DNA from: Ochromonas danica
Lineage: Eukaryota > Sar > Chrysophyceae > Chromulinales > Chromulinaceae
Assembly: GCA_015146655.1 (NCBI GenBank)
Contig: VKHL01000050.1
Location: 1-64,000, forward strand
Length of the DNA: 64,000 nucleotides
Direction of reading: 5' to 3'
Numbering within the stretch: position 1 is the first letter of the stretch; each line of letters starts with the position of its first letter. This document shows positions 28,801-57,903 of this stretch, piece by piece. The notes under the pieces are model-generated. The model made no database searches. It saw nothing but the letters and a program-made list of their open reading frames with translations, and had not been told where the DNA came from. The translations under genes and the position numbers were made by a program.

Positions 28801-31800
28801 CAAAGATGGCAATCTCCCTTTATCAAGCAGCATCATGTCGAAGGTGAAATGTAACGCGTCCTGGACTGTGAGTGGAGTGTTATTACGAGACGGAACATTG
28901 TCAACTACTCATGGATATCTTCTGACGACCAAAGCTATTCCGGCAAACCAACTCACTATGTTCTCTCTCACTAGTCTTTCTCCTTCTTCCCTTAATATGG
29001 TGGAAGGATCTACCTACACATTTAATGTGAGATGCGGTGAAAGTTCTTTAGCACTATCTGTTAGTGTTAATGCTCCTCCCCGATCTGGCCGATTGAGTGT
29101 AGATCCTCACTATGGACAGCCCTTTGACACAGCTTTCTTCCTTTACACAGATTTGTGGTGGGACGAAGATCTGCCTCTACTCTATGAATACAGCTTTCTA
29201 TATGAAGAGAACCTAGGAGACGAACTTTATCTACCTCTGAGCAAATGGTCTGAAATCGCCTATACATATGCTTTGCTGCCAGTGCAAGCAAACGGAAGTA
29301 TCTTTCTTCAAGTGGCAGTCTCTGCTAGAGATGATCTTGGGGCTGAGAGTAATCGACTATATCAAACGGTTGCTATGGACGAACGACTCCCTGGTGGGCA
29401 AACCAACTCAACACTGTCAGAGATAATATCCTCTTTGTTGATTGAATATGATAATGAAGCGAACTCTGACATGAGCAAGCTTCTCAATGTTCTGTCCACT
29501 TCGGTAGCCTCGTTGAATGTGATCAATTGCTCAGCTTCTCCGAATTGCGCTGACTTGCATCGTTCCCCCTGTCACTCCATTGCCAACACCTGTGGTAGCT
29601 GTTTGAGTGGATATGTTTCTGTAGAGGAAGATGAGAACAACAACAATCCGTGTATCTCCTACGCAGAGATCAGTCAGAACTTTTCCACTGCTACTCGCAA
29701 GTGCTCTTCTTCTCAAAGCTGTCCTTCTTGGCAGTATTGCTATCAAAATACGGGTCTTTGTGTGGATCGAAGCAAGACCTGCAATTCTCCTACTTGCTCT
29801 GGACATGGCAAATGTAACTTGGTCTCTGCTTCCAATGCCTCCAAGCTGGTTCCATCTTGCTCTTTGCTTTCTGCTTCATGTGAGGCTATTTGCCAGTGTG
29901 GCTATGGTTATGGAGGATCCACATGCTCCGTGAAGACATCAGAGCTTGCACAGGCACAGTCTGTGAGGTCTCAGCTGATCTATGGCTTATCCACAGTTGT
30001 TGAGCATCAGGCACTCTCTGTGAGTCCTTTAAATTCTTCGAGCAGTAGTGATTTAAGCCGCAGCTCTTTGCTTGATTTCGCCTATCTAATGGCAGAGATT
30101 GTTCGCAATGAGGATGACATTTCCTCTAAAGCTGTTGCTCTCTTCATCAGAAGTTTGGCAAACTATTTGTCTTCCGAGGCATTGCAGGTCAATACCGACT
30201 TCTACTTGGAGGTTGCAGATGTATTAGATCCTGTCTACACAGCCGTGACAGATTTCTTGTTCACGAGTAGCAGCAACAGTTCTTCCTCTTCTGCCGTCGT
30301 TTTGAGTGTTTTGAGTAACATCCTCTCAGACTCTAGCACAGGCTCTTATAGTGCTGTATATGACGGAATTCGCGTCACCTCCTATGTTTATGAGAGTACG
30401 GGCAGTTCCTCTTCGCAAGTGATCACGATTCCCATCGCGCTGACGACTCAGGAGCAGCTTCTTCTCAGTACTGGACAACTCACAACTCTCCCTACCGTGA
30501 CTGTCACCACCGCAGCCAACTCTTCCTCTTCCTCTGTTGCTGTCGTTGTGACGGATCAATCCGCCTGGAGCTCAGCGAATGTTTCCGGCACGCTGAATTC
30601 CAATGTTGTGGTTGTTAAAGGCACAAATGTGGAATACGTTGACGTCACATTGACGAAGACTTCAACAACTAACTCCACACCCATATCGTTTTCCATTGAA
30701 TGCGAAGCCAAAATCAAGGCGCTGAAGAACTTTACTTGCGTTGACTCAGGCACAGTGATGAAGTATCAATGTGATGGTACAGCGGGTATTTATTATGGTA
30801 AATGTCCAGTCTTGAGCTCCACTTGCACTTCGATCAATATTCCGGGGAAAATGGCAACAAGTAATAGTCAATGCTTTGTAATCAATGCCACGGAAACTAT
30901 TATCACTTGTCGCTGTGAGTTAAGTGCCACCACCGGTAGCGGAGTCGTAGCTGCTGCTTTAGTGATGAAGTACATGGCATCGGACTGGTCAAACACCTTC
31001 CAAGCATCCAGCTCTTTCACCAGCGCTGCTGCTCTGGGCAAGGCTTACATTATCATCTCGATCTTCAGCTCTCTTTGGGGTTCCTCCATCTTCCTTGTCT
31101 TCTACTTCTCTTGGGGGTGGAGGAAGAAGAGCAAGAAGCTTCATGACGAATCTGCTGTTCACGACAAAGCTAATGCATATAGAGAAAGACTCAAACAATA
31201 TTTCCCGTGGAATTTGCTTGGTCGAAGGAACAGAATTAAAGCTATTGAGTCCCTGGGTTCTAATGCTGCACTGGCTGTACATGGCGTCACTAAACCCAGT
31301 GATGAACTTGAAGATATTCGAAACAAGCTGAGTGCGTACATATCCTCTATTTTCCCTGCTGTCTTCGAGAATGATCGCTTGCTAGCAAGTCTGTACAGTG
31401 AGTTATACAAGCACCATGCCTATGTCAACTACTTCTTCCGCCTGCATCAACAGCGCTCACCCATGTTGCTGGTGATTGAGATGGTGACCATGCAGAGCTT
31501 CTTGCTATTCTTGTTAGCTTTGCTTTATGACCTCAATTATCCCGATGATGATGGCTCTTGTCCCACTCACACGAACTACTCGGATTGCATTGCTCGCAAG
31601 TATATGCTGAACAGCAAAGACAGTTATTGCAAGTGGACTGATAGCACATGTTCCTTTGCACAGCCCTCTTTCTCCGTCACTACTTCAATGTACATCTCTA
31701 TGCTTATCTCCTTCGCCACTTGTTTGGCATCAGATCCACTGGAGAACTTGATGCGGATGCTTAGTGCCCCATCATCACTATCCCCTCCAACCTCTTCAGC

Positions 31801-34562: not shown

Positions 34563-36571
34563 ATGATGACTGAAAGATCTCTTCCCCTAGTAGTACCACC
34601 TGATGAGGATGATGCCCCTGAGGCAGCGAGTGATATCGAAGAAGAGGAAGAAGACGAACAAGTAGAGGAAGAGGAAGCACAGGAAGAAGAAGGACCAGCA
34701 GCACCACAGCAGACAGGAGAACCAAAAGAACAAGTCCAACCAGAAGGTCATGAACCAAATCCTACGACAGAGAAACGAAGATCATCCTATCGTGGAGCTC
34801 ATTCACGATCACCACATATTGCACGAATTGAATTACAACCTTCAGATTTTTATTTTGGATCTACTTTAGGTGAAGGTGCTTATGCTCGTGTTGTCCATGC
34901 GAAAAGTAAGAAGACAGGTGATCAGTTTGCAGTGAAAATCATGGAGAAAATGCATATTAAAAGAGAAAACAAGGTAAGACCATTTTCACTCGCAATTGAC
35001 TCCTGTATAGCAGCTACAGGCTGTGAGATAATTAATGATTAAATGGACGTGCGCTATTCTCTCGATAGATCAAACATGTCCTAATGGAGAGAAAAATCTT
35101 GACTATGGTCTCCCATCCTTTCATAATCAAGTAAGTTAAATTCTCTATTTTATTTTAATTACCATATGTCATGTTCTGTGGCTTAATCTCTTTGTGTGTA
35201 TGTATTCAGATTTCACTTCTCTTTCCAAGATGCTGGCTATCTCTACATGTGTATGGATTTAATACCAGGTGGGAATTTGTTAGACTTGATTAACCGTGCA
35301 GTAGAGGAGCGAGGTGGTGGAATCAATGGTGGCAGTGGTGATCTTGATGAAGATACATCACTGGTGGGATGTGATCAACACACCACTCGCTTTTATATGG
35401 CAGAGATTGTGGAAGGATTAGAATATTTACATAAAAACGACATCATTCACCGTGATCTTAAGCCAGAAAGTAAGAAAGTGGACTCCTATTATTCACTTCA
35501 ATGTTTTATTTTGATATTCATGTCTCCTTTTTCCATGCTGTAGATGTCCTCATTTCTCCGCAAGGACATATCAAAATCACTGATTTTGGAATGGCAACCA
35601 TTTTAAGCGACCATGAATCTCCTAGAAATTCATTTGTTGGTACGCAAGATTATGTGTCTCCGGAAGTGCTGGCAGGTGATCGGCAAGTGACCGGTGCTTG
35701 CGACCTGTGGGCACTTGGTTGTATGCTTTTCCAAATGCTCACCGGGCATTCTCCCTTCCGCCAGCCTACTGAGTATCTTACTTTCGAAGCTATTATGAGT
35801 CATTGTAAAGGTAGTCAACCTTTGCACTATCCACCCAGTATCGATACAGCGGCAGGGGATCTTATCAGTGCTCTTTTGCAACCTGACGAAAAAGATCGTC
35901 TGGGATGCAGAGCGGATACAATAGCAATAGGTTATCAGCAACTCAAAAGTCATCCTTTCTTTGAGTCAACACTTTGGGGAGAATTGTTGGAACAGACCCC
36001 TCCCTATGCTCCAGGAGAAAGTTGTTATCCTTCTCCAGACAATATGCAAGATGGTGCCACAAACCAATGGCTGCTAGAAGGGGAGCCTACACCCATTGAA
36101 CCATTTGTTAGTCGTGCGGATTTGACCAAAGAGCGGCGAGCTAGTCGTGCTGGAAGTCTTTGGCAGCAGTTTCTTTATGAGGGGGAAAAGCAAGTCTTCA
36201 CTTCAGCTGTTTACAAGCGTAAGGTGAGGTATTTTCGTTGTTTGCTGATTATCGTATGTCTGAAGACTCTACTTGTTTTGGTTGACGTTGATAATTATTT
36301 TCAGGGACTATTCTCCAAGCGGCGACAGCTCATCCTTACTGATAGACCCAGACTGATCTACATTGACCCTGCAAGTATGGAGCTTAAGGGAGAGATTCCA
36401 TGGACCCAAACACAGCCAGTCTCCTGTTCAGTTAAGAACGCGAAGGAGTTTGACGTCCACTGTGCGATCTCGCAACGATCGTATCACCTCTCAGACTCTG
36501 AGGTTGGTGCACAGACCTGGGTGGATTTCATTAATGCCATGCTTCGCAAGCAAAGAGATGGAAATTGCTAA
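34563..36571 (+). CDS. PDK1: 3-phosphoinositide-dependent protein kinase 1 (PDK1)
   Basis: Five exons: 34563-34973, 35069-35130, 35210-35469, 35544-36223 and 36305-36571, giving 559 aa with all phases consistent. The N-terminal 90 residues are acidic and low-complexity. The kinase domain has the Gly loop GEGAYARVV, FAVKIMEK, HRDLKPEN, DFGMA and YVSPEVL, with PDK1-type features (FHFSFQDAGYLYMCMDLIPGG, SFVGTQDYVSPEVL). A Gly-rich insertion lies after the hinge. The C-terminal PH domain starts at VYKRKGLFSKRRQLILTDRPR and matches the PDK1 PH domain. PDK1 phosphorylates the activation loop of AGC kinases such as Akt, S6K and PKC. An AGC kinase without a hydrophobic-motif tail but with a C-terminal PH domain fits PDK1 well. 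Confidence 0.95.
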
Positions 36572-36825: not shown

Positions 36826-37065
36826 CTACAGCCGAAGACCTCCACGCAGCTGCAGAACCATGTGAATAGTACCACCCGCAGTAACATTTTGTTCTTGGAG
36901 AGTCTTCTCATCGCTCAACTGCTTTCCGCTATAGATCAATCGAATTTGGTCCACCTGGATGCCTTCCTTCTCCTGGAGCGTTTGCTTCACCGCCAAGATC
37001 GTGGTCTCTGCCTCAAAGTTAAATTGCTGCTTTCTTCCAGTTAGTGTTTTAATAAAAATTTGCAT
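36826..37065 (-). CDS. NEDD8: NEDD8/RUB1-like ubiquitin-like modifier
   Basis: A single exon of 79 aa, the length of one ubiquitin fold plus a three-residue tail (LRL) after the diglycine at 75-76. Ile44, Val70, Leu8 and Lys48 of the ubiquitin surface are kept. Residue 72 is Gln, where ubiquitin has Arg and NEDD8/RUB1 has Ala or Thr. Loss of Arg72 is the known feature that directs NEDD8 to its own E1, and RLIYSGKQL with DEKT also matches NEDD8. It should be processed to expose the diglycine and attached to cullins. A diverged ubiquitin gene is the alternative. It converges on PDK1. Confidence 0.8.
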   Translation of the reverse strand: MQIFIKTLTGRKQQFNFEAETTILAVKQTLQEKEGIQVDQIRLIYSGKQLSDEKTLQEQNVTAGGTIHMVLQLRGGLRL

Positions 37066-37347
37066 GGTGGGAAGCGGGAAAAGATGATGGAAAGGGAATT
37101 GTCAGAGAGAGAGAGGCTGCTGAAATGAAATGTCTGGGGGAAACAATGGGAATTTGGACATCTGGGAGATCTCCCAACAGAAACGCCACATTCTATTTCT
37201 CCATCGTAACACGCGGAATATATAAATCCCGAAATATAAAAAGACGAAATGATATGATTATAATGCACTTCTTTGTTAAGGAAATTTAAAAATAGTTTTT
37301 TTATTGACCAAATAAACAAAAAGAGAAAGCGAAGGCACAAAAGATAT

Positions 37348-37425
37348 TGACTGAAGTGGGATTCGAACCCACGCCCGAAGACTGCGGCCTTAACACAGCG
37401 CCTTAGACCACTCGGCCATTCAGCC
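37348..37425 (-). tRNA. tRNA-Leu(AAG), copy 1
   Basis: 78 nt with a 7-bp acceptor stem (GGCTGAA/TTCAGTC), D arm TGGCCGAGTGGTCTAAGGC, anticodon loop TTAAGGC with anticodon AAG, a short extra arm and T arm GTGGGTTCGAATCCCAC. The internal A and B boxes are intact. Discriminator A. A T4 run follows a few bases downstream as Pol III terminator. No intron; CCA is not encoded. Confidence 0.95.
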
Positions 37426-38163
37426 ATTAACTTGTCATGGTAAATTAGCCTCAAAGATCAAATATAATTTCAAAAGACTACGAATGGTGGGGTTTGAGAA
37501 GATGAAGTCATTCATTCAATTGCGGTGGTTACAGTTTAATAGGACAGCAGCAATCTTGGCAGAGATGATGTCATCATCCAGTATGCAAGCCTTTTAATCT
37601 CGATCAATCTTCTTCCTGTATGGACTATTATTGCACATTGACTTTCAACTTTATCGTTCTAACCGAATCCTTAGTCCTTTGAGAAGATTCGTTGTGGTCA
37701 CTCTCCTGGGAAGAAAGACTGAAAAAGGCAATATATCATGTCCACCAGATGAACGTCACCATCATCATCATGAGCTCATCTTGAATTGATAAGAAGGAAT
37801 CAAAGGGATGACCGCCTAGTACAACTATTGGGGAGTTTGTTTGAACTTTAATCTAAGCACCTACTATGAATTCATAAATGTAATATGTAGCAACAGACAG
37901 ATATGCAAGTCTCGCCCAGCATGACAATATACAACAAGTAAATATTATATAAATCAGTCATGAGACTGGCTGACAACGACAAATAAGACACCACACATAT
38001 TGAGCTGCGGAAATGCAATGAATAGAGCGACGTGACAAATATAAACATGACTCAGCAACAAAAAACAAACCAACACGAAAAAAGTCATTGCACGCTGCAT
38101 AGTCAAAACCAACAGGCAGCAAACTACAAATGATGCTTTCGTGTTCAATTCCAGTCCAAACGG
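37426..38163. other. Spacer between tRNA-Leu and the histidine kinase array
   Basis: 738 bp. The part next to the kinase gene (about 37880-38160) weakly resembles the 3' flanks of the other kinase copies (CAGTCATGAG...GACA and neighbouring bases), so it probably belongs to the repeated unit. The rest shows nothing I recognise. Confidence 0.4.
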
Positions 38164-40816
38164 TCATATATAATATAATAATGCATCCCCTTTCGGAACT
38201 TTCTCCTGCACACGCCTGTACGTATGGTAGAAGGTATCCATGACGAATGGCTTGGCTATGAAGGCATCAGCTCCCGCGCGATAAGCTTCCGTGGCGGTCT
38301 CCACATCTGAATTGGCGGAGAAGGCAATGATGATCTGATGGAAAGGAAGCAATTTCTCGCATCCGCTCTTCATTTTCTCACAACGGTTCGCATGGAGCTT
38401 CTTCAGGACCTCTGAAGAACGCGGTGACCAACAAGAATGTCCTCCTTCCCCTCCATCTCCCCTCTGACTATCATGTCCCAACTGTCGTAGTCGCCGCGTT
38501 GCCTCCAGACCATCCATCACGGGCATTTGCAAGTCCATCAAGATTACATCAAAGCCTCGTCCATGCTCTTCCAGGCGTTTCAGAAACACTTTCACAGCCT
38601 CGGCGCCATTGACAGCCGTGAAGACCTCATGCTTGCTCCTCTTCAGCATCATGGACACAGTCTTGCGGATCGTGGGAGAATCATCCACCACAAGGATATC
38701 TAACTCAGGAACACTTGCAGGCTCAAGAAACGAACCGACAAGTCTCGTGGAAGCCGCAACCGATGGATCAGGGACGTCTGCCTGTTCAGAACATACTAAG
38801 GATGGAGAACGACCAGAGGCGACAGCTGGTGTCGTGTTACTGGACTCTTCTACTGATCCAGGAGAAGAAGCAAGTGCTTGGTGTAATTGTTTTTGAATAG
38901 CAGCCACTGTCGGAACATTGCTATCCGCAAGCAACGAGTGTGGCCTGCATGCTTGCTGCATAAAAAGAGCAGCTTGCTGGTCTGGGCGATACGGAATTTG
39001 AAACCAAAACAATGACCCTTCACCTCCATCTCGTCTCCTCCGAACACCATAAAGGCCATCCAAGGCATCCACGCGCTTGGCTAAAGAAAACAGACCCAGG
39101 CCTGTTCCCCCAGCCAGCCTCTGTGCCTGTTTGAAGGGACTAAACAGTGCAGTCATTGCCTCCTCCGAGAGACCAATGCCATTATCTTCCACCTCGATGA
39201 GAAGATAAGAAGTATTGACAGGGAGGTTACGACTAGACTTGCTACTCCGTGAAAGAGACAGCGCGGCCCATGTGTAGGCATTATAGTCTCGTGAAGCGAC
39301 TGTATTACAATTACCATCTGCTTTGCATTGCGCACATCCTTCGGGAATCGTGGAGGTCACTGAGACTGACAACCGCACCTCTCCTCCACACGAATACTTG
39401 ACTGCATTACTGAGCAAACATAAGATATTCTCTTGCAGCCATTGCTTGTCAGTGATGATATGGCTACAAATATCTGTGGGTAGAGACTCCAGGGTGATCG
39501 CCACACCGTTCTCCACATCTTTCATGCAATTCATGGGCAACTGCAATGCCTCCACCAGCTCCACTGTCTCATACTTTGGCATCAGCTTAAACCCCTTCGA
39601 AGCCTTGGTGTAGTCCAAACAACGATTAATCGCCATCAGCATGAAGGTGTTTGATGTCTTCATGTTAACGATGGAGTGGCCGATGGAGAACATCAACTCG
39701 TCCACATCTGGTCTGGAAAGAGTGAAGTCAGGATCTCCCTCCGGGAGCTTATCCTTCAGGTCAGCCAAGACCTGCTCCACAAATTCGATCCCACAAAACA
39801 AAGAGGCAAGGGGCTACGACAGCAATAACAGTATCAACAGCAGAATCAGTCAGTCAGTCATATTTGTGAACACTGGATATAACGTAGTGGATCTATTCCA
39901 TGCCATCGTGTAAACGTACCGTTTTCAAGTCATGGGCAACGTTCGCTATCATGTGACGCATCTCTGAAGCATTGGCTTCATCCACTGCCTTTTCGCGCGC
40001 AGCTAACGTGGCTTGCAGTTGTTGACCACAGAAGAAGAGGAAGAGATTCAGTCTCTTGGCCAGCACGAGAGTCGTGATACTTGCCATAGAGTAGATGACG
40101 AGGGACATGATGGATGCAATCGCGGAGGAGAATACGATACAGAAGACCAACGTGAGCAAGGACATACTCCACAGCATTAGTGCAAAGGCGAAATAGGCCC
40201 CATGAGTCGCTAGAAGGAAGAGTAAAGGGACCACCATCACCAATTGGCTTCCATCCCCTGGTAAAGCCTTGCTATCAGCCACAGGGTTGCAGTAGGTAGC
40301 ATAGGAGATGAGGTTGTCATCATTGTCACAAGGTCCTGCCACCACCCTGTTGATGAGGTCCAGGCAGAAGACAACATGCAGTACTAACACCACTGCTTGT
40401 TGATACACTACCATCCTCTTCTTCGATTCTACGACTAGTCCATCTTCTTGAGGATTCACTTGACGACTAATGCGATAGTGCAAACACCATGTGAAGATAT
40501 TTATGACCAACACCAACATGAACAGTGCGGCTGAGATCCAAAGCGAGGTGTGATGGTTCTCATGAGGAAACATCCACAAGAAGTTAATGATACCCAACAG
40601 TAAAGCGATGAAATAGAGGGAAGAAATTATCAAGAAACAACTATTCATGATGATGAGAGAGGATATGGATTGATTCTCGAGATTGAATAGGCGGTATTGC
40701 TCTTGGACGAAAGGATCTCTGATTCGTCCCAGTGCATCGACATGTTTCTTTAGAACAGCTTCGATCTTGGCAGTGAAAGAGAAGCCAAAGGTGGAAGTAG
40801 AAGGGGAAGCCTCCAT
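38164..40816 (-). CDS. Hybrid histidine kinase with multi-span membrane sensor, copy 1
   Basis: Two exons: 39920-40816 and 38164-39813, giving 848 aa. Five or six hydrophobic spans fill residues 45-270 with only short loops, so it has no large extracellular sensor domain. The HisKA box follows at once (MRHMIANVAHDLKTPLASL, His295; the intron lies between T and P). The HATPase domain has the N box LLSNAVKYSCGG (about 434), DNGIGLS (about 509) and GGTGLGL (534-540). A Ser-rich linker leads to a C-terminal receiver: VVDDS (676), VILMDLQMPVMDG (phospho-acceptor Asp726) and a Lys in IAKPF. The receiver has a Gly/Ser/Lys-rich insertion before HQIIIAFSAN. It would feed a phosphorelay through a separate HPt protein, not seen here. 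Signal unknown. Confidence 0.92.
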
Positions 40817-42106: not shown

Positions 42107-44708
42107 CTATGTACAATGTACGCACGCATCCCTTTTCAGGACTTTCTCCTGCACACGCCTGTACGTATGGTAGAAGGTATCCATGACGAATGGCTTGGTT
42201 ATGAAGGCATCAGCTCCCGCGCGATAAGCTTCCGTGGCGGTCTCCACCTCTGAATTGGCGGAGAAGGCAATGATGATCTGATGGAAAGGAGGCAGTCTGT
42301 CTTCCTCTCTAGAACGCGGCGACCAACAAGTACTTCCTCCTTCCCCTCCATCTCCCTTCAGACTATCCCAAGCCAACTGTCGTAGTCGCCGCGTTGCCTC
42401 CAGACCATCCATCACGGGCATTTGCAAATCCATCAAGATTACATCAAAGCCTCGTCCATGCTCTTCCAAGCGCTTCAGAAACACTTTCACAGCCTCGGCG
42501 CCATTGACAGCCGTGAAGACCTCATGCTTGCTCCTCTTCAGCATCATGGACACAGTCTTGCGGATCGTGGGAGAATCATCCACCACAAGGATATCTAACT
42601 CAGGAACACTTGCAGGCTCAAGAAACGAACCGACAAGTCTCGTGGAAGCCGCAACCGATGGATCAGGGACGTCTGCCTGTTCAGAACATACTAAGGATGG
42701 AGAACGACCAGAGGCGACAGCTGGTGTCGTGTTACTGGACTCTTCTACTGATCCAGGAGAAGAAGCAAGTGCTTGGTGTAATTGTTTTTGAATAGCAGCC
42801 ACTGTCGGAACATTGCTATCCGCAAGCAACGAGTGTGGCCTGCATGCTTGCTGCATAAAAAGAGCAGCTTGCTGGTCTGGGCGATACGGAATTTGAAACC
42901 AAAACAATGACCCTTCACCTCCATCTCGTCTCCTCCGAACACCATAAAGGCCATCCAAGGCATCCACGCGCTTGGCTAAAGAAAACAGACCCAGGCCTGT
43001 TCCCCCAGCCAGCCTCTGTGCCTGTTTGAAGGGACTAAACAGTGCAGTCATTGCCTCCTCCGAGAGACCAATGCCATTATCTTCCACCTCGATGAGAAGA
43101 TAAGAAGTATTGACAGGGAGGTTACGACTAGACTTGCTACTCCGTGAAAGAGACAGCGCGGCCCATGTGTAGGCATTATAGTCTCGTGAAGCGACTGTAT
43201 TACAATTACCATCTGCTTTGCATTGCGCACATCCTTCGGGAATCGTGGAGGTCACTGAGACTGACAACCGCACCTCTCCTCCACACGAATACTTGACTGC
43301 ATTACTGAGCAAACATAAGATATTCTCTTGCAGCCATTGCTTGTCTGTGATGATGTGGCTACACATATCTGTGGGAAGAGACTCCAGGGAGATCGCCACG
43401 CCGTTCTCCACATCTTTCATGCAATTCATGGGCAACTGCAATGCCTCCACCAGCTCCACTGTCTCATACTTTGGCATCAGCTTAAACCCCTTCGAAGCCT
43501 TGGTGTAGTCCAAACAACGATTAATCGCCATCAGCATGAAGGTGTTTGATGTCTTCATGTTAACGATGGAGTGGCCGATGGAGAACATCAACTCGTCCAC
43601 ATCTGGTCTGGAAAGAGTGAAGTCAGGATCTCCCTCCGGGAGCTTATCCTTCAGGTCAGCCAAGACCTGCTCCACAAATTCGATCCCACAAAACAAAGAG
43701 GCAAGGGGCTACGACAGCAATAACAGTATCAACAGCAGAATCAGTCAGTCAGTCATATTTGTGAACACTGGATATAACGTAGTGGATCTATTCCATGCCA
43801 TCGTGTAAACGTACCGTTTTCAAGTCATGGGCAACGTTCGCTATCATGTGACGCATCTCTGAAGCATTGGCTTCATCCACTGCCTTTTCGCGCGCAGCTA
43901 ACGTGGCTTGCAGTTGTTGACCACAGAAGAAGAGGAAGAGATTCAGTCTCTTGGCCAGCACGAGAGTCGTGATACTTGCCATAGAGTAGATGACGAGGGA
44001 CATGATGGATGCAATCGCGGAGGAGAATACGATACAGAAGACCAACGTGAGCAAGGACATACTCCACAGCATTAGTGCAAAGGCGAAATAGGCCCCATGA
44101 GTCGCTAGAAGGAAGAGTAAAGGGACCACCATCACCAATTGGCTTCCATCCCCTGGTAAAGCCTTGCTATCAGCCACAGGGTTGCAGTAGGTAGCATAGG
44201 AGATGAGGTTGTCATCATTGTCACAAGGTCCTGCCACCACCCTGTTGATGAGGTCCAGGCAGAAGACAACATGCAGTACTAACACCACTGCTTGTTGATA
44301 CACTACCATCCTCTTCTTCGATTCTACGACTAGTCCATCTTCTTGAGGATTCACTTGACGACTAATGCGATAGTGCAAACACCATGTGAAGATATTTATG
44401 ACCAACACCAACATGAACAGTGCGGCTGAGATCCAAAGCGATGTGTGATGGTTCTCATCAGGGAAGTAGTGAATGATGCCCAACAGTGAAGTGATGAAAT
44501 AGAGGGTAGAAATTATCAAGAAACAACTATTCATGATGATAAGAGAGGATATGGATTGATTCTCGAGATTGAATATGTGGTATTGATCTCGGACGAAAGG
44601 ATCTCTGATTCGTCCCAGTGCATCGACATGTTTCTTTAGAATAGCTTCGATCTTGGCAGTGAAAGAGAAACCAAAGGTGGTGGTGGAAGTAGAAGGGGAA
44701 CCCTCCAT
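42107..44708 (-). CDS. Hybrid histidine kinase, copy 2
   Basis: Two exons: 43815-44708 and 42107-43708, giving 831 aa with the same architecture and intron position as copy 1. I chose the ATG at 44708 (MEGSPSTSTTTFGFSF); it aligns with the start of the other copies. The end of the sensor, the H box, the whole intron and the catalytic domain are almost identical to copy 1. The first membrane span (IISTLYFITSLLGIIHYFP) instead matches copy 3. The receiver keeps VVDDS, LMDLQMPVMDG and ITKPF. Its insertion is shorter and different (LAWDSLKGDGGEGG...REEDRLPPFHQ), and the C-terminus ends in LKRDACVHCT. All catalytic residues are present, so it looks functional. Confidence 0.92.
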
Positions 44709-45222
44709 TGGCAAGGATATGTTAATTAATATGGATACGTGGTCGGTAATGGGTCACAGAGCAGGCGAGTGCTTTCTCTACTTCACGTTGATTGGGTGCT
44801 TCAAGACAAAAGAGGGACGCGACGTGGTTTTGATCTTTTGCACAGAGAAGAGAGCCCAATGCAACGTAACTCACAGCTCTGCTGCTCATCAGCAGTTTTG
44901 TCGTTTTCCGTTTTCCGGTTTCCGGTTTTCTGCAGCGAAAATAACACGTTTGTGCGGAAGGATACATACTCTCAGGGAGCCAAACATTGTTGTCGGTTGG
45001 AAAGAAGGCAAGCCCGAGCCATTGACGAAGATAATCTACTTTGATTTCGGCAGAGAACAGAATGTAACTTGATACCCTTCTTTGCTTCACATTCGGCAAT
45101 TCCCTTGGCTGGATGAAAATTCTTGTGTAGGTTCGGAGATTATGTCGAGGCAGTAGAATATTATATCAAAACTATTTAGTTAATAATGGATCAGGTAAGC
45201 ATCGAGAAACGAGTGTTTGATA
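44709..45222. promoter_or_regulatory. Upstream region of kinase copy 2
   Basis: About 510 bp. It includes a run of TTTTCCGTTTTCCGGTTTCCGG (44895-44930, given here in part) and CACGTTTGTGCGGAAGG at about 44946. The shorter TTTGTGCGGAAG also occurs upstream of the plastid gene at 63242. Overlapping short frames here are not convincing genes. Confidence 0.35.
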
Positions 45223-46689: not shown

Positions 46690-49316
46690 CTATATATAAT
46701 ATAATACTGCGTCCCCTTTCGGGGCTTTCTCCTGCACACGCCTGTAGGTATGGTAGAAGGTGTCCAGGACGAATGGCTTGGCTATGAAGGCATCAGCTCC
46801 CGCGCGATAAGCTTCCGTGGCGGTCTCCACATCTGAATTGGCGGAGAAGGCAATGATGATCTGATGGAAAGGAAGCAATTTCTCGCATCCGCTCTTCATT
46901 TTCTCACAACGGTTCGCATGGAGCTTCTTCAGGACCTCTGAAGAACGCGGTGACCAACAAGAATGTCCTCCTTCCCCTCCATCTCCCCTCTGACTATCAT
47001 GTCCCAACTGTCGTAGTCGCCGCGTTGCCTCCAGACCATCCATCACGGGCATTTGCAAGTCCATCAAGATTACATCAAAGCCTCGTCCATGCTCTTCCAG
47101 GCGCTTCAGAAACACTTTCACGGCCTCGGCGCCATTGACAGCCATGAAGACCTCATGCTTGCTCCTCTTCAGCATCATGGACACAGTCTTGCGGATCGTG
47201 GGAGAATCATCCACCACAAGGATATCTAACTCAGGAACACTTGCAGGCTCAAGTAACGAACCGACAAGTCTCGTGGGAGCCGCAACAGTTGGATCAGAGA
47301 CATCAACAACCGGTTCAGAACATACTAAGGATGGAGAACGACCAGAGGCAACAGCTGGTGTCGTGTTACTGGAGTCTTCAACTAATCCAGGAGTTGAAGC
47401 AAGTGCTTGGTGTAATTGTTTTTGAATAGCAGCCACTATGGGAACATTGCTATCCACAAGCAACGAGTGTGGCCTGCATGCTTGCTGCTTAAAAAGAGCA
47501 GCTTGCTGGTCTGGGCGATACGGAATTTGAAACCAAAACAATGACCCTTCACCTCCATCTCGTCTCCTCCGAACACCATAAAGGCCATCCAAGGCATCCA
47601 CGCGCTTGGCTAAAGAAAACAGACCCAGGCCTGTTCCCCCAGCCAGCCTCTGTGCCTGTTTGAAGGGACTAAACAGTGCAGTCATTGCCTCGTCGGAGAG
47701 ACCAATGCCGTGATCCTCCACCTCGATAAGCAGGTAAGAAGTAAAATTCCGACTAGATTTGCTACTCCGCGAAACAGACAGCGCCGCCCATGTGTAGGCA
47801 TTATAGTCTCGTGATGCGATTGTATTATAATCGTCATCTTCTTTGCCATGCACACATCCTTCGGGAATCGTGGAGGTCACTGAGACTGACAACCGCACCT
47901 CTCCTCCACACGAATACTTGACCGCATTACTGAGCAAACATAAGATATTCTCTTGCAGCCATTGCTTGTCTGTGATGATGTGGCTACACATATCTGTGGG
48001 AAGAGACTCCAGGGAGATCGCCACGCCGTTCTCCACATCTTTCATGCAATTCATGGGCAACTGCAATGCCTCCACCAGCTCCACTGTCTCATACTTTGGC
48101 ATCAGCTTAAACCCCTTCGAAGCCTTGGTGTAGTCCAAACAACGATTAATCGCCATCAGCATGAAGGTGTTTGATGTTTTCATGTTAACGATGGAGTGGT
48201 TGATGGAGAACATCAACTCGTCCACACCTGGTCTGGAAAGAGTGAAGTCAGGATCTCCCTCCGGGAGCTTTTGCTTCAGGTCAGTCAAGACCTGTTCCAC
48301 ACATTCGATTCCACAAAACAAAGAGGCAAGAGACTATGACAGCAATAACAGTAGTATCAGTCAGTCAATCAGTCAGTTAGTCACATTTGCAAATACTGGA
48401 TCTATTTCATGCCATCGTGTAAACTTACCGTTTTCAAGTCATGGGCAACGTTCGCTATCATGTGACGCATCTCTGAAGCATTGGCTTCATCCACTGCCTT
48501 TTCGCGCGCAGCTAACGTGGCTTGCAGTTGTTGACCACAGAAGAAGAGGAAGAGATTCAGTCTCTTGGCCAGCACGAGAGTCGTGATACTTGCCATAGAG
48601 TAGATGACGAGGGACATGATGGATGCAATCGCGGAGGAGAATACGATACAGAAGACCAACGTGAGCAAGGACATACTCCACAGCATTAGTGCAAAGGCGA
48701 AATAGGCCCCATGAGTCGCTAGAAGGAAGAGTAAAGGGACCACCATCACCAATTGGCTTCCATCCCCTGGTAAAGCCTTGCTATCAGCCACAGGGTTGCA
48801 GTAGGTAGCATAGGAGATGAGGTTGTCATCATTGTCACAAGGTCCTGCCACCACCCTGTTGATGAGGTCCAGGCAGAAGACAACATGCAGTACTAACACC
48901 ACTGCTTGTTGATACACTACCATCCTCTTCTTCGATTCTACGACTAGTCCATCTTCTTGAGGATTCACTTGACGACTAATGCGATAGTGCAAACACCATG
49001 TGAAGATATTTATGACCAACACCAACATGAACAGTGCGGCTGAGATCCAAAGCGATGTGTGATGGTTCTCATCAGGGAAGTAGTGAATGATGCCCAACAG
49101 TGAAGTGATGAAATAGAGGGTAGAAATTATCAAGAAACAACTATTCATGATGATAAGAGAGGATATGGATTGATTCTCGAGATTGAATATGTGGTATTGC
49201 TCTCGGACGAAAGGATCTCTGATTCGTCCCAGTGCATCGACATGTTTCTTTAGAATGGCTTCGATCTTGGCAGTGAAAGAGAAGCCAAAGGAGGAGGTAG
49301 AAGGTGAAGCTTCCAT
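46690..49316 (-). CDS. Hybrid histidine kinase, copy 3
   Basis: Two exons: 48429-49316 and 46690-48333, giving 843 aa. The layout is as in copies 1 and 2. The sensor is identical to copy 2 over long stretches, and the receiver insertion and C-terminus match copy 1 (GHDSQRGDGGEGGHS...; GDAVLYYI). The Pro that normally follows the HDLKT box is Ser here, because the second exon begins TCTCTTGCC instead of CCCCTTGCC. The ATP-binding motif reads EDHGIGLSDE rather than EDNGIGLSEE. The linker is more diverged (CVHGKEDDDYNTIASRDY). Phospho-acceptor His and Asp are kept. The Pro change may alter the kinase/phosphatase balance; that is inference. Confidence 0.92.
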
Positions 49317-49593
49317 GCCTATGATATATATTTCAATTGATCAGACATATTCTTTCTCCGTTTTATACGCATTCGCCACAACGGAATTATGGAAGTCCAC
49401 GTCACAAGATATTCCAAGATAAATGCATTTCAGACAAACAAAAAGGTTGCTAAAAGTAAAAGCACCCTCTGTATGAATATTCTCTTGTTTTCAACGACAT
49501 TCGATATTGAGAACTCTTTCGTTATTGATTGTTGTTTGGTATGAAAAGCAAAATACGAAACAGCGACAAAATAAAAGAAAGGCAAAAGCGATT

Positions 49594-49671
49594 TGACTGA
49601 AGTGGGATTCGAACCCACGCCCGAAGACTGCGGCCTTAACACAGCGCCTTAGACCACTCGGCCATTCAGCC
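49594..49671 (-). tRNA. tRNA-Leu(AAG), copy 2
   Basis: 78 nt, identical in sequence and orientation to the copy at 37348-37425, with anticodon AAG, intact A and B boxes and a downstream T4 run. Flanks differ from copy 1 beyond a few bases, so the identity is confined to the tRNA itself. Confidence 0.95.
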
Positions 49672-49767
49672 ATTGAAAATGTTGTTTGATCGTGGGATTT
49701 TAATGTAACGTTATGTTTGGTTGGAAAAGGATCGAATAAATTACTTTTGCTGGGACTTGATGTGAAC

Positions 49768-51144: not shown

Positions 51145-54100
51145 TTATCTTGTGGTCGAGTCAAAGCGAGTGCTTGTTCTGCCTCGAGGAGGTGACCCTT
51201 GCTGTTGTTGATTTCTTCCGACTTCAGGACTACCTCGACCACTGCCAACCGCAAGGCTTCCCCGATCAGTTGGGAGAGTAGAATTACCTCCCACCCCACC
51301 TGTTGCGGTGGAACTGACTCGTCGTGAAGTAGGCGGAGAGAAGGCGATGGCACTTCCTCGTGCTCCTTGCAGAATTGTCGTCCTGGCGGAGACAGGCGGA
51401 CTTGTGACAGTCGATCGAGAAGGACTCGCATTTGCTTGTGCTAACGCCAACGCAAGATCCCATTCTTGATCAAACTGATCATAGGATCCTCCACCACCCG
51501 CTGTATTAGATGCTGTGGTTGCGGTCACAGCTTGGATTAGTCGAGGACGCGGCGCATCTGAACGCACAGATCGTGTCAACGGAGATGCCGACGCGGCTGT
51601 GGCGGGAGTGCCAGGATCAGTTGACATGACTTCATCCCATTCATTTGGAGTCGTGTTGCCATTATTAGGCGCTACTTTACGACTGTTTTGAACAGCATAT
51701 TGGTTCTTTAGACGCTTACGTCTCTTTAATCGATCAATCTCAGCTTGTTTCTCTTGTATGATAATTGTCCGACATTTATTAAAGACACCCTCAGGGAAAT
51801 GATTCACTCCTAAGTTGGCAACTTCTTCGTGAGGATAGTTACTTGTTACCTCTTCACCACAGAGATCTAGTTCAACCAGAAGATAGCACAGTATAGGTCA
51901 GTATGTAATTGATGTTCAAGTATGAAAAGTGATGATGATCTTACAGCAAAAGTCAGTGCGTTCACGTACACAAGGAATTGAATCCGTGATCTTGTGAACC
52001 ATATGATTACATGTCTCTGGGTCTTCTTTCTCGATTAACTTCTTACAAGCAGGACATTTCTGTGCACCAGATCGTGTTTTCCAATCTTCCAATGATTCAT
52101 CCAAGACTTCCATAGGACATCGTGAACCATAATGCCAAGGCTTTTTACAACGAATACAAAAGCATTGGATACAATAGGGACATTCTACACGTGCCATATG
52201 TGTCATATCAGGTGGAAATGTAACATAATTCTGACAAAATATACATCTCATCCCTAACAATCATACACAACAATCAGTCAGAACAGAGAATAGATTAGAC
52301 AATAGCTTATTCTTACCATCTCCATAGAGTGCTCGATCACTAAAATCAAGAAATCTTCTAAATTGTGGCTCAGTGAGAATTCGTCGAGCAATGTTAGCAT
52401 CTAGAATTCCCGTACATTGTTCATAATGCATAGGACATTTCACAGGAAACATTCCGATATCGCCCAAAGCAGACTCCAAATAGCCTTTACAATCCTCCAC
52501 ACAGATATTATGACGACATTCTAAACGCAAGACTCGTCTACAATAGGTTTTACAAACACAACAATTCCCAGAATGTAAGAAGATATTACTACGAAAGAGA
52601 TTCCAATAACTTTTATATTTTGGTTGGGATGGAGTAACTTGTAAATAGGCTCTACGAGGAGGAGAGCTTTGTCCTGTCAGTCATCATATCCCATAGAACA
52701 ATCAATTAGTCCATCGCACAAGGGGAAAGAAGAGAGTAATAGTAAAGTTTACCTTGAGGGTAGAAGACGTATCCACGGCGAGCTTTGAGTTTAGATATGT
52801 AGACCATCGCAGCGATGATCATGATGAGACCCCCCGCACCACCCAAGGAGATGTAAACAGGTAAGAGAGGATCGCTTTTACTTGGATCAGGTTGAAGACT
52901 CTTCACTGTGAAGGAACCAAAACATGCAGGTCATACCATGAGACAGACAGAAGAAAGCAACAGTCAGAATTGAGAACTCACCATAAAGTGCACAGGCTTG
53001 TCCACTATCGTTCGGGACGAGCACATACTCCACATTGACGGAGGCATTTGAGGTGATAGCAGAAGAAGTATTTCGCTCAATTAAGACAATACTCTGCCCA
53101 CATGGAATAGTCACATTAACAGTCCCACCAGTCATCGACACCATAGCATTGTTTTGAATGACCGACTGATAGGAATCAAAGAGTAGCGAGTAGTTGGCTG
53201 TGAGGCCACCATAGACACGAACACGTGGAGTAGCAGCCATTAGAGTGTTCGTAGTGAAACTATTGCTTTGCTCACTACCAGAGAAAGACAAGATGAGATA
53301 GAAAGCAGTGAGAGGTTGGGTGGAAGGAGAATAGAATCGATAATTGCAAACATCCGCTGATTGAACTACATCATCATTATTGCTCCCATTATCCCCTGCA
53401 ATAGTATATACTCGTTGATTGTCTGAGATTGCACTTTTCTTAATAAACGCGGAAGCTAATTGTGTTGGTTGAAAGTAGACAGTTGAGGATTGTAAGATAG
53501 CATTGTTGTTACTAGTCGATGATGTCAACAATCCACACAGTGAGCTGGTATAGGATGTGCTTTGGAAAGTTCCTGGTGGTCTACCATCATAGAGCTCGAG
53601 AGAAACGTCGCTGAGAGAGCTTTCATAGGAAGGGAAGACAGAAAGACTCGACAGAGTCGTTGGCACAGTGAGGACATAAGCAGCACTTGATCCATCCAGA
53701 GACTTCGTCATTTTCAAGCTTGAAGGTAATTCCAATAGAACACTCTGTTGTTGGGATTGACTTTGAAGCTGTTCCAGAGGACTTCCTTCAGTAGTCCAAT
53801 AAGTCGCTGAGAATCCTGTACCATAGGAATAGGCCGCACTGGCTGAGGCAAAGGTGATCAAGACCTGCTCACCACGGATAATCAACAAATCGGGCAAATT
53901 CGAACATGAAGAACAACTCCAAACAATCGCTCCTGCATTAGCAGATGATCCTGAATATACAACCAATGTAGCACCTGCAAGATCAAGATTAATAAAATCA
54001 ATAACGATCACTGGATTAACCATTGTAGCCACTATATAAGGTTGAATTAACCAACTACATCGTTGTGCGGAATAGATGGCTTCCGTGCTGGACGATCCAT

Positions 54101-56411
54101 CTGAGAAGATCATGGAAGGTGCAGTGAGGGTGACAGGACTTGTCAACATACCACAACGATAATTCGATCCATCCGAGAAATAAGAAACCTCAAAATCTCC
54201 TTTCACATTGGCTGTTGAGGTTAAACTAAGTACTGCATTAGCAGCTGATGTTTCAATCCATTGATATGGATCAGGTAGACTGCGACCACAAAGTGTTGCA
54301 AGAACTGCACTCTCCAATGAAGATCCATCATAGATGGTAAGTTGTGCGCTACAATCTGGCAATGAGATGTTATTCACCATAAAGTAAATCTTCCCTTTAG
54401 CAGAAGCAGGCATGACCATCCAAGTGAGGTTACAGCCCACTCCAACGATACCTTCACTGTGTCTAGCTGAGGTGAGAGAGAAAACAGACGAGCTGTAGAG
54501 ACGAACAACACCATCTCCAGGGAAAGAGTACGCATCTTGTACTGCATAATAGGTCAATGAGAATCCATACCCTGCGGGACTACTTCCCGTGATATAAGAG
54601 AGACCAACTCGATTTGTTGGGAGGAGAATCGGAGGAGGAATCGCAGAGGTGGCATTAATGACGGTGAAAACCTTTCCTTTAGTGGGTGATCCTATATAAA
54701 TGATCAACATAGCCCCTGAAGTCAAACTAAATCGATTAAAAGAAATGAAGATAGCAGAAACATTCATATTGCTTTCTTCACCACCTGGGAGAACATCCCA
54801 CAAACAATTCTGTGAGGAATAGATTGCTTCACTGGAACTGCTGCCATCGGTAAGTACCCATGAAGTCATTTTAATGGCAGCAGGATTTCGAATAAACCCA
54901 CAATGATAATTCGAGCCGTCTGTATAATATGCTAATTGCAAATTGCCTCGTGGAGAGCTGTCAGATGCTTGGAAGACAATTGCCGCTATCTTCTGCTGCG
55001 TTATGAACCATTTCTTCGGTGTTTTCGTTGTTCCACGAAAGGTTGTCAATAATGTGGCTGTATTATTTTGCAGGTTGCCATCATAGAGATAGATTACATC
55101 ATCTTTATGTGCCAGATTTAACTGACTGAAAGCAAACATGATGGTGCCCGTGACCAAAGTGGGAGTGACGTACCATGTGTAGTTTAAACCAGGACTATAG
55201 ACAGTGGTATTACCAGGAGGAGAAATATCCAAACTGGAGGACATAGCCATTGAAGAATAACCACTGCCAATGCCTACACTGCCCATGTAATTGGAATAAT
55301 AGCTTCCATAGAATCCCTTGTAGATAACTGGAGCGGTTGCATCAGAAACGTAGACAATGTACAAGTAGCTTCCGGAGGAGGTAATAACTGGGGGTACGGT
55401 CGTAGTTCCACCTTGACCATTCCATAACAAAGTGCTAGAAGATGAAGCACCATCATAGACCAAGACACTGCTGCCGTACTTGAGACTTACCCACCCCATC
55501 ACCAAACTCACTGTTGACGAGGAGACGGGATTAATCAACCAGGAACAAGAAGCAGATCGTCTCATAAGATCAGAGGAAGCGCTTCCATCAGAGATAAATA
55601 GACTGTCTCCCAGCAGATTGTTGGGATTTGTAAAGCTGCCACAGTTGAACAAACCTGTGTCCACATAGTACGTCAAGAGGAAAGTGGACATCGAGCTGCT
55701 CGCAGTGCTGAAAATGATCAAAGCATTTCCACTCGTTGCATATAGCCACTTTGTTAGCAGAGATTCAGCATCTGCTCGACTGCTATTATAGAGTGGTCGA
55801 GCAATGTTCGCAGTGTCGTAAATCAATAACTGTTCAGAAGAAGTGATATTCACCCAAGAAAAAGCAAACGTAATAGTGTTGCTCTGGCTAATCACCCATC
55901 GTTGAACGGCATTAGCAGGGTTCATTCCTGCCATGGATTGATAAGGCGAAATAGAGGCATAGCCCATGTTGAGATTGATGGTGAGGTTGCTGAGAGGACT
56001 GGTCAATGTTGAAGGAATACCGACATAGAACAGAGTAAATGAACTTGATGTAAAGCTTACACCACTCACTCCTTTGATATAAATAATGACTGATCCCGTG
56101 CTGGAAGTGAATGGCGGAGGCACTAAGGATCCACACGAAACACAGTTCCAGATGTAGGAACTACTAGAAGAGTCATAGATGCGCAACTCTGCTTGACGAT
56201 TATTTATACTTTCGAAAATTAATTGGATCTGACTTGTAGGCACGGAGGGACTAATCAGCCATTGATATTGGTCAGAGGCAGAGTTGATTGACACGGTGAT
56301 TCTCCCTGTCGAAGTGGTCAATTGTTGGGTAGAAATTGCTTCTACATTTTCATTACCATTAGACAGTTCGAGAATGAACAAAATTAAAATCAATATCAAA
56401 ACCGCTTGCAT
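51145..56411 (-). CDS. Predicted receptor-type E3 ubiquitin ligase: CUB-like ectodomain, one span, cytoplasmic RING-IBR-RING
   Basis: Five exons: 52982-56411, 52753-52905, 52317-52673, 51945-52253 and 51145-51866, giving 1656 aa. Exon 1 codes a signal peptide (MQAVLILILILFILEL) and about seven CUB-like repeats (LTIYDGSSLESAVLATLCG, YFSDGSNYRCG). Exon 2 codes the membrane span (about 1159-1182) and a basic stop-transfer. Exon 3 has RING1 (CCVC from 1232, LECRHNICVEDC, VKCPMHYEQC). Exon 4 has IBR (CIFCQNYVTF, VECPYCIQCFCIRC, PWHYGSRC) and RING2 (QKCPACKKLIEK, ETCNHMVH). Cys1395 sits at the catalytic thioester position and FCYLCGEE closes RING2. A Ser/Gly-rich tail of 240 residues follows, with a basic coil and a weak UIM-like DLALALAQ. 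All four introns are GT-AG and phase 1. A false join of two genes is possible, but every phase fits. Confidence 0.85.
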
Positions 56412-56811
56412 TTGTTGACTTCTAGCGATTTCACGGGGAGAAACAACAGTTGAAATACAACAAACAGTTGAAAGAAATTCACACTTTCTGCAAGAAGAAA
56501 GACTTCATGGGGTCGGTCAGTCAGGACAGAAAGGTGAGTTAAGCAAGAGTACAGAACAAGGAGAAGGTTAGAGATATTCCAAAGAACAGAGTGAGGGAAT
56601 AGTAGGGAATTGCCTCAGAACATGTCCCAATGCGAAGATGTCCAAAGCAAAAGTTGGTCCTGTTGCTGTTGTTGGGTGGGAGAGAAGGAAGTCCAATTTT
56701 GGAATTAAAATCTCCTTTTCTGCTCTGACAAAGTCTCACTGAGCCGTTACGGTTCATATGGAAACAAGAAATTACTGTTAAGGTCTGAGCAAGACCAGTT
56801 CAAGAGCTTTG
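56412..56811. promoter_or_regulatory. Divergent spacer between CUB-RBR and FYVE genes
   Basis: 400 bp between head-to-head genes. ACTTTCTGCAAGAA at 56483-56496, about 72 bp upstream of the CUB-RBR ATG, is an exact 14-bp match to 22702-22715 upstream of the giant surface protein. The remainder shows no gene. Confidence 0.4.
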
Positions 56812-57903
56812 ATGATGTCCAAGACAGAATTGTTACATACAACCAATGTCCTCTTGGTAAATAGCAAGAAGAGCGGTCAAGCGATCAATCGACTCTCTCT
56901 AACAGAAGGAAATCTGCGAGTGAATCATGACGAGCACAAGATAGGGGAGAATGTCATCAAGATACGCAGATTAGCGGTGGAAACAAAAGACAACAAAGCT
57001 CCTGGATGGGTAGTCAACGAAGATATGCGATCATGCATGGAGTGTGGCAAGCAGCTTCATCTCATGAGACGTCCTCATCATTGTCGCAAATGTGGCAATA
57101 TCGTTTGTTATCGTTGTTGCCGTGATTCGATCGTGCATGGCATGGAAGTGCTCGGTTGTGTCAAGGTCTGTCACAGATGCTACTATGATGGTGAAGTGAG
57201 AAGGCAGTTTGCTGATAAATCGGTCGACGCTGAGGTCAGCAGATGCTCCGTCCAGACCTGCGACCAAGCAGTGGACACTCCCGACCTTTTACAAGAAACA
57301 CCTTGGGGAATTGATGAGGAAGAAATGGAAAGATTAGGCAAGGAAAATTTCAATCTCAGAGACGAATTAAGAGAATCTCGAGAGCAGGAGGCACTTCTCC
57401 AGTCTTCCCTGCAAGAGTCTCAAGAAGCTGTTGGCACGCTGTCCAAGGAGTTGAAGAGTTCTAACAAGCGATTCAAGAACAATATTTCTGCTGCCGCGAC
57501 TCAGATTCGACTGCTTGAACGACAGTTGACAGATGCGAAAAAGGAAATCACTCGATTGACAGAGGAGAAGCAAGGACTGATGAAGCTGCTTCTTTTCAAG
57601 CAGCCAACTCCAGCGCAGCAAACCGTCCACACAGAGAGCACCATCATCAACACCCAGTTATATTACCGCGAAGAGTTTCACAGTTCTATGACCACCAACC
57701 AAATTACCATTGAAAGGACTGTTGAAGAAGAGGAACAAGCAAACATGGAGAACAAATCTCCAAATCGCATCTCTGCCAGTAAAACATCCTTTGTAAAGAC
57801 ACCCACCAGTGCGATCACTAGAAGTGATTGTGATGACTATGAAGTGCCAGACTGTCCCTTTGGTATTGATTCTAATGAATACTTCTCTCCTATAGCTCAG
57901 TAA
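56812..57903 (+). CDS. FYVE zinc-finger coiled-coil protein
   Basis: A single exon of 363 aa from the ATG at 56812. The FYVE domain (about residues 65-130) has the WxxD-type start (GWVVNEDMRSCMECGKQ), the RRPHHCRKCG basic motif that binds phosphatidylinositol 3-phosphate, VCYRCCRD and the KVCHRCYYD end, with eight zinc-binding Cys/His positions filled. A coiled coil (about 175-265) follows, rich in Glu/Leu (LRESREQEALLQSSLQES, IRLLERQLTDAKKEITRL). The C-terminus is a disordered Ser/Thr-rich tail. It is likely an endosomal adaptor or tether like EEA1-class proteins, though much shorter. The exact orthologue is unknown. Confidence 0.85.
   Translation: MMSKTELLHTTNVLLVNSKKSGQAINRLSLTEGNLRVNHDEHKIGENVIKIRRLAVETKDNKAPGWVVNEDMRSCMECGKQLHLMRRPHHCRKCGNIVCYRCCRDSIVHGMEVLGCVKVCHRCYYDGEVRRQFADKSVDAEVSRCSVQTCDQAVDTPDLLQETPWGIDEEEMERLGKENFNLRDELRESREQEALLQSSLQESQEAVGTLSKELKSSNKRFKNNISAAATQIRLLERQLTDAKKEITRLTEEKQGLMKLLLFKQPTPAQQTVHTESTIINTQLYYREEFHSSMTTNQITIERTVEEEEQANMENKSPNRISASKTSFVKTPTSAITRSDCDDYEVPDCPFGIDSNEYFSPIAQ

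What the first reader, a model, noticed from the sequence alone, without database searches (positions are those of the whole stretch)
51145..56411. Receptor-type E3 ligase: CUB-like ectodomain fused to a cytoplasmic RING-IBR-RING module
The sequence shows a signal peptide, about seven CUB-like repeats, one membrane span with basic stop-transfer, then a complete RBR triad including the catalytic Cys in ETCNHM. All known RBR ligases I can recall are soluble or carry membrane spans without a large extracellular ligand-binding region. This layout would let an outside signal directly control ubiquitin transfer inside the cell, a one-protein receptor-to-ubiquitin route. The first step is seen; the signalling role is inference.
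Basis: partly seen in the sequence, partly recalled or inferred. Interest (0 to 1): 0.9.

Follow-up and report, generated by a model that had tools for sequence, protein, structure and literature searches.

The report
Cell-surface receptor fused to ubiquitin ligase
One predicted gene of an unidentified eukaryote encodes a protein with seven binding modules outside the cell, one membrane span, and a ubiquitin-attaching enzyme module of the RING-between-RING class inside, a combination I did not find described and which still needs cDNA proof.

Summary
Minus strand 56411-51145 gives a predicted 1656-aa protein in five exons: signal peptide, seven CUB-like repeats, one membrane span followed by KLKARR, then RING1-IBR-Rcat. 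The repeats are related to each other; their profile matches cubilin at 3.3e-15, and a model of repeat 7 matches solved CUB domains. Pfam supports the IBR and, just under its cut-off, the Rcat. RING1 rests on zinc-ligand spacing only. The catalytic Cys (C1395) aligns with Ariadne-1, but weakly (E 4.6). A separate RBR gene is unlikely: no ATG precedes RING1 in its exon, nor the span in the membrane exon. No paper listed by my searches describes such a fusion; no eukaryotic proteome could be searched. Membrane ligases with binding ectodomains are known with a plain RING (ZNRF3/RNF43, GRAIL), so this is an RBR variant of that plan. Control of the ligase by an outside ligand is inference; targeting and turnover of a bound partner is more likely.

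The parts
56355..56411 (-). signal peptide, aa 1-19
   Evidence: hydrophobic window mean 2.09 at aa 1-19
55998..56354 (-). CUB-like repeat 1, aa 20-138
   Evidence: hhalign against r3-r7 profile E 3.5e-06; no CUB hit when scanned singly
55647..55997 (-). CUB-like repeat 2, aa 139-255
   Evidence: E 1.1e-07; no CUB hit when scanned singly
55284..55646 (-). CUB repeat 3, aa 256-376
   Evidence: E 2.9e-09; Pfam CUB 22.8 bits, cut-off 21.4
54906..55283 (-). CUB-like repeat 4, aa 377-502
   Evidence: E 2.9e-06; Pfam CUB E 0.0077, below cut-off
54522..54905 (-). CUB-like repeat 5, aa 503-630
   Evidence: E 2.9e-10; Pfam CUB E 0.033, below cut-off
54159..54521 (-). CUB-like repeat 6, aa 631-751
   Evidence: E 1.3e-08; Pfam CUB E 0.092, below cut-off
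53760..54158 (-). CUB-like repeat 7, aa 752-884
   Evidence: E 7.9e-14; Pfam CUB E 0.07, below cut-off; AlphaFold pLDDT 79.6, best PDB match TSG-6 CUB_C 8.0e-06
52983..53759 (-). membrane-proximal ectodomain, aa 885-1143, family not recognised
   Evidence: segments r8 and r9 fail the repeat test; no Pfam hit above cut-off
52906..52981 (-). intron 1, 76 nt, joins ectodomain to membrane exon
   Evidence: the only one of 13 frame-keeping GT-AG joins with a GTRAG donor; read-through frame scores non-coding, -0.204
52793..52858 (-). membrane span, about aa 1160-1181, followed by KLKARR
   Evidence: best window aa 1162-1180, mean 2.09
52674..52752 (-). intron 2, 79 nt
   Evidence: GTAAAC...GACAG
52414..52563 (-). 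RING1, zinc ligands C1232 to C1281
   Evidence: C-x2-C-x11-C-x-H-x2-C-x3-C-x17-C-x6-C; Pfam E 0.8 only
52254..52316 (-). intron 3, 63 nt
   Evidence: GTAAGA...GTTAG
52117..52248 (-). IBR, aa 1316-1359
   Evidence: Pfam IBR 3.8e-07 on this piece alone; 8 ligands in place
51772..52056 (-). Rcat/RING2, aa 1380-1448, split by intron 4 (51867-51944, 78 nt); catalytic C1395 at 52011-52009
   Evidence: Pfam IBR 4.8e-05, 0.5 bit under cut-off; alignment with Ariadne-1 1wd2 through CNHMV (E 4.6)
51145..51771 (-). Ser/Pro/Gly/Arg-rich cytoplasmic tail, aa 1449-1656, and stop
   Evidence: 71.6% of its 208 residues are S,T,P,G,Q,N,R,K,D or E; no Pfam hit above cut-off

Best explanation
A single gene encodes a type I membrane RBR ubiquitin ligase. 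The CUB-like array, outside the cell or in the lumen of the secretory/endosomal system, binds a ligand or a neighbouring membrane protein. The RBR inside takes ubiquitin from an E2 through RING1 onto C1395 and passes it to the bound partner's cytoplasmic tail and/or to itself, so that the complex is internalised or degraded, as ZNRF3/RNF43 do with a plain RING. Shown from sequence: gene layout, CUB-like repeats, span, IBR and Rcat. Inferred: RING1 fold, one transcript, surface location, activity, substrate and outcome.
For: Gene model and frames. CUB family and fold. RBR. Topology: 16 N-glycosylation sequons and net charge -18 in aa 20-1158, 3 sequons and +18 in aa 1183-1656; basic residues right after the span. 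Codon usage is best in the predicted frame in 5 of 5 exons (exon 4 only weakly, 0.003). Working precedents: ZNRF3/RNF43 and GRAIL.
Against: No RNA evidence. No related gene found: the RBR query gave no relative in viral contigs or genome contigs (8 pattern matches, 0 confirmed), the ectodomain query none in viral contigs (3, 0 confirmed) or genome contigs (28, 0 confirmed); these are viral and prokaryotic collections, so this says little. RING1 has no significant profile match and its model failed. The catalytic-Cys alignment has E 4.6, and an unrelated protein (C5a, E 0.19) ranked above Ariadne-1 in that search. A His (H1400) stands where Ariadne-1 has Cys. Nothing shows a ligand, a partner or an activity.
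Confidence: 0.5

Rival explanations
1. Ligand-gated receptor, the first reader's idea: an outside ligand clusters or reorients the CUB array and thereby switches on an autoinhibited RBR, starting a signalling ubiquitin chain.
For: Large repeat ectodomain and catalytic module in one predicted chain. A 208-aa low-complexity tail that could be regulated.
Against: No regulatory domain was recognised by Pfam in the cytoplasmic part. The linker between span and RING1 is about 50 aa of no recognised family. No data on a ligand.
Confidence: 0.2
2. Two genes: a secreted CUB protein ending in the read-through of intron 1 (stop at 52887) and a separate RBR gene.
For: Gene-prediction errors are a known cause of false domain architectures (PMC3927609, listing and start of abstract only). 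Exon 1 does run on to a stop 95 nt further.
Against: Unspliced, the RBR frame opens at 52680 and its first Met is residue 74 of exon 3, past the first RING1 Cys (residue 37); the membrane-exon frame opens at 52930 with no Met before the span. Intron 1 is the only one of 13 frame-keeping joins with a GTRAG donor, and its read-through frame scores non-coding (-0.204). Not excluded: an undetected upstream first exon for the RBR, or a non-ATG start.
Confidence: 0.1
3. Luminal quality-control or sorting ligase of ER, Golgi, vacuole or phagosome: the CUB array reads cargo inside an organelle.
For: Same topology; several transmembrane RING ligases are listed at ER, Golgi or lysosomes (PMC4021871, passages).
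Against: CUB proteins it matches, such as neuropilins and cubilin, act at the cell surface as far as I recall. No retention signal was looked for.
Confidence: 0.12
4. Pseudo-ligase: the zinc-ligand change (His at 1400) and a lengthened Rcat loop make it an inactive ubiquitin-binding receptor.
For: H1400 where Ariadne-1 has Cys; 7 residues between H1400 and C1408.
Against: C1395 and the following NHM are kept, and His is a usual zinc ligand (general knowledge).
Confidence: 0.08

Closest known systems
PA-TM-RING / Goliath-type membrane E3 ligases (GRAIL, RNF13; ZNRF3/RNF43)
   Same: signal peptide, ectodomain, one span, cytoplasmic RING-type ligase; ectodomain binds substrates (GRAIL) or R-spondin (ZNRF3/RNF43) (passages)
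   Different: PA domain, not CUB, in PA-TM-RING; plain RING, not RBR, so no thioester on the E3
Membrane RBR ligases (RNF19A/B, RNF144A/B, RNF217)
   Same: RBR triad with hydrophobic regions (passages)
   Different: the passages seen name no signal peptide or ectodomain; here the span precedes the RBR and follows about 1140 ectodomain residues
Cubilin, neuropilins, PCPE-1, enteropeptidase, TSG-6 (CUB proteins)
   Same: CUB profile and fold
   Different: as recalled, none carries a ubiquitin ligase
Ariadne-1/HHARI and HOIP/RNF31 (RBR ligases)
   Same: IBR and Rcat motifs
   Different: soluble, no ectodomain, as recalled

Membership tests
RBR E3 ligase | RING1 with canonical zinc-ligand pattern | tested here: inconclusive
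   8 ligands in RING-like spacing; Pfam zf-C3HC4_3 E 0.8; model pLDDT 38.2
RBR E3 ligase | IBR between the two RINGs | tested here: met
   Pfam IBR 3.8e-07, above cut-off; 8 Cys/His ligands in place
RBR E3 ligase | RING2/Rcat with conserved catalytic Cys | tested here: met
   Pfam IBR on the Rcat piece 4.8e-05, 23.8 of 24.3 bits, so just under cut-off; C1395 aligned with Ariadne-1 through CNHMV at E 4.6, below a chance match to C5a. Met on motif and position, not on a strong score. Role of the Cys: PMC3305615 passages
RBR E3 ligase | E3~ubiquitin thioester | not testable with these tools
   biochemistry needed
CUB domain protein | CUB sequence profile | tested here: met
   Pfam 1.4e-16 for the protein; singly 1 of 7 repeats above cut-off; cubilin 3.3e-15 with a profile of the seven
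CUB domain protein | CUB beta-sandwich fold | tested here: met
   repeat 7 model: of 23 PDB matches with E up to 0.001, 21 are CUB proteins and 2 (ranks 18, 21) are Clostridium enterotoxin complexes; best 8.0e-06. Only repeat 7 was folded
CUB domain protein | two disulphides from four cysteines (typical, not universal, as recalled) | tested here: not met
   Cys per repeat r1-r7: 2, 0, 2, 0, 2, 3, 4 (counted from the Cys list); hence 'CUB-like'
PA-TM-RING ligase | PA domain and single RING | tested here: not met
   no PA domain among the 4 Pfam families at E up to 1; RBR instead

The most novel reading that the evidence does not exclude
A self-contained cell-surface receptor whose catalytic output is RBR thioester ubiquitin transfer, switched by ligand binding to a CUB array, i.e. 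a ubiquitin counterpart of receptor kinases.
Probability: 0.2. Interest if true: 0.85.

Novelty: new variant of a known kind. Interest (0 to 1): 0.6.

Why it matters
If transcript and topology hold, it extends ectodomain-bearing ubiquitin ligases from the RING class to the RBR class, in which the ligase itself carries the ubiquitin. It would give one protein in which to test whether an extracellular binding event can change ubiquitin transfer, and a natural model for surface-protein degraders.

Tried and rejected
Repeats 8 and 9: the membrane-proximal 259 residues looked like two more CUBs by eye (YDG-like motifs) but failed the profile test and, for segment 8, my own HMM (i-Evalue 26); dropped. 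Other copies in the window: a six-frame scan of 1182 stop-to-stop stretches of 30 aa or more found no second CUB array (next best E 0.095) and no second RBR (exon 3 piece: no other hit; exon 4 piece: next best E 0.65).

RING1 by structure: single-sequence AlphaFold of exon 3 failed (pLDDT 38.2, pTM 0.28), so no fold search was run on it. PDB sequence searches with the RBR: RNF31 best (E 0.0026), with a probable chance match to nsp10 at 0.032; Rcat alone: C5a 0.19, then Ariadne-1 4.6; RING1+IBR: RNF31 at 0.0049-0.062 through the IBR only, nucleocapsid p11 4.2.

Ubiquitin-interacting motif in the tail: EWDLALALAQA at aa 1551 fits a loose UIM pattern (recalled). Of 2000 shuffled cytoplasmic parts 3.5% also do, and Pfam shows none; not claimed. 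In one search the printed 50 of 1139 fold matches also hold Clostridium perfringens enterotoxin chains (TM about 0.45); read as shared beta-sandwich shape, not followed.

Relatives elsewhere: searches gave none. Literature: ten searches, of which I saw listings with titles and abstract starts: (1 of 1 paper listed; 20 of 69; 1 of 1; 15 of 18; 8 of 8, none holding 'IBR domain'; 15 of 133; 5 of 41, on ZNRF3/RNF43 only; 8 of 8; 10 of 6,706, too broad to mean much), 65 (15 of 30). None of the listed entries is about a CUB-RBR fusion; unlisted ones were not seen, and the one paper was not opened. Papers opened: PMC4327156, PMC3305615, PMC4021871 and PMC4931619 (passages only), PMC2904391 (abstract and outline, plus a term search with no hits).

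Full report
Gene. On the minus strand exons 56411-52982, 52905-52753, 52673-52317, 52253-51945 and 51866-51145 join into an open frame of 1656 aa through four GT-AG introns of 76, 79, 63 and 78 nt. In 5 of 5 exons the predicted frame has the best codon-usage score of the three and no stop except the terminal one; exon 4's score is near zero (0.003). All four introns fall in the same phase (in-frame offset 2 in exons 2-5). For comparison, three introns of the window's histidine-kinase paralogues have similar sites (GTACGT or GTAAGT to TAG; 106, 106 and 95 nt).

One gene or two. The join that matters is intron 1. Read through in frame, intron 1 scores as non-coding (-0.204). A separate RBR gene would lack an obvious start: the RBR frame opens at 52680 and its first Met is residue 74 of exon 3, past the first RING1 cysteine at residue 37; the membrane exon's frame opens at 52930 with no Met before the span. 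An unseen upstream exon or a non-ATG start is not excluded. This argues for one transcript, without proving it.

Ectodomain. Between signal peptide and span lie about 1140 residues with 16 sequons and net charge -18. Seven segments, r1 to r7, match a profile of r3-r7 (own segment left out; E 3.5e-06 to 7.9e-14), while 9 of 9 reversed segments do not (best 0.019); the two membrane-proximal segments r8 and r9 fail. By eye, r3, r5 and r7 share CG...DGS.SS..C.W, and r4 and r6 end in DGSNY, suggesting copies of a two-CUB unit (sequences; inference). Pfam calls CUB at 1.4e-16 for the protein, but singly only r3 passes the cut-off, r4-r7 score below it, r1-r2 are not hit. A profile of the seven finds 19 distinct PDB sequences at E up to 0.1, all named as cubilin, enteropeptidase, PCPE-1, neuropilin or TSG-6, best cubilin 3.3e-15. 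AlphaFold of r7 with the other six as alignment gives pLDDT 79.6 and pTM 0.77. Its best PDB match is the TSG-6 CUB_C domain (8.0e-06, TM 0.66); of 23 matches with E up to 0.001, 21 are CUB proteins and 2 enterotoxin complexes. The usual four cysteines are not kept (2, 0, 2, 0, 2, 3, 4 in r1-r7), so I call the repeats CUB-like.

RBR. After the span (aa 1162-1180) and KLKARR come RING1 (ligands C1232 to C1281), IBR (C1317 to C1359) and Rcat (C1380 to C1448). Pfam IBR matches the IBR at 3.8e-07, above its cut-off, and the Rcat at 4.8e-05, 0.5 bit below it. RING1 is not recognised by Pfam (best E 0.8) and its single-sequence model failed, so it rests on spacing and on its place before an IBR. phmmer aligns the Rcat with Ariadne-1 (1wd2) through CNHMV, putting C1395 at the catalytic position, but at E 4.6 and below an unrelated C5a match at 0.19. 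That this Cys is the active site (C357 in HHARI) is from PMC3305615, passages. The next ligand is His1400 instead of Cys.

How it works. Best-supported: a membrane ligase that finds its target through the CUB array and ubiquitinates the partner or itself for internalisation or degradation. The model is ZNRF3/RNF43, whose ectodomain binds R-spondin and which promotes ubiquitination and internalisation of Frizzled and LRP6 (PMC4931619, passages); in GRAIL the PA domain binds substrates (PMC4021871, passages). Direct ligand gating of the RBR remains possible, but nothing in the sequence shows it.

Novelty. The domain types are known; the order CUB array - span - RBR was not among the papers listed by the ten searches named under Tried and rejected, in an open-licence library that lacks many journals, and several of those listings were cut short. 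No eukaryotic proteome could be searched, so relatives may exist undescribed.

Noticed in passing
36826-37065 -: 79-aa ubiquitin-family protein ending LRGGLRL (Pfam ubiquitin 1.1e-22), NEDD8-like by eye (recalled), about 14 kb from the RBR gene.
   Followed up: partly
38164-40816, 42107-44714, 46690-49316, all -: Three tandem hybrid histidine kinase genes (HATPase and response regulator), each with an intron at the same place; two tRNA-Leu(AAG) genes of equal Rfam score lie near the outer copies at 37347-37426 and 49593-49672.
   Followed up: partly
22802-33976 +: 3724-aa ORF with NHL repeats, PT repeats and a REJ domain, a second very large, perhaps surface, protein.
   Followed up: no
52887-52981 -: If intron 1 is retained, exon 1 reads on for about 31 residues, partly hydrophobic (FSILTVAFFC..), to a stop: a possible short form without span and RBR.
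   Followed up: no
51945-52905 -: All four introns are in the same phase, so exons 2 (span), 3 (RING1) and 4 (IBR and start of Rcat) are symmetric, as expected of exons that can be moved as units (inference).
   Followed up: no
12907-14499 + and 56809-57903 +: EHD-type dynamin-family protein and a FYVE protein, both of endosomal families as recalled; the FYVE gene is divergent from the RBR gene, about 400 bp away.
   Followed up: no
34563-36571 +: Kinase C-terminal half plus PH_3 domain in 35501-36571, with a probable kinase N-terminal part at 34563-35042 by eye (not scanned); PDK1-like by layout (recalled).
   Followed up: no
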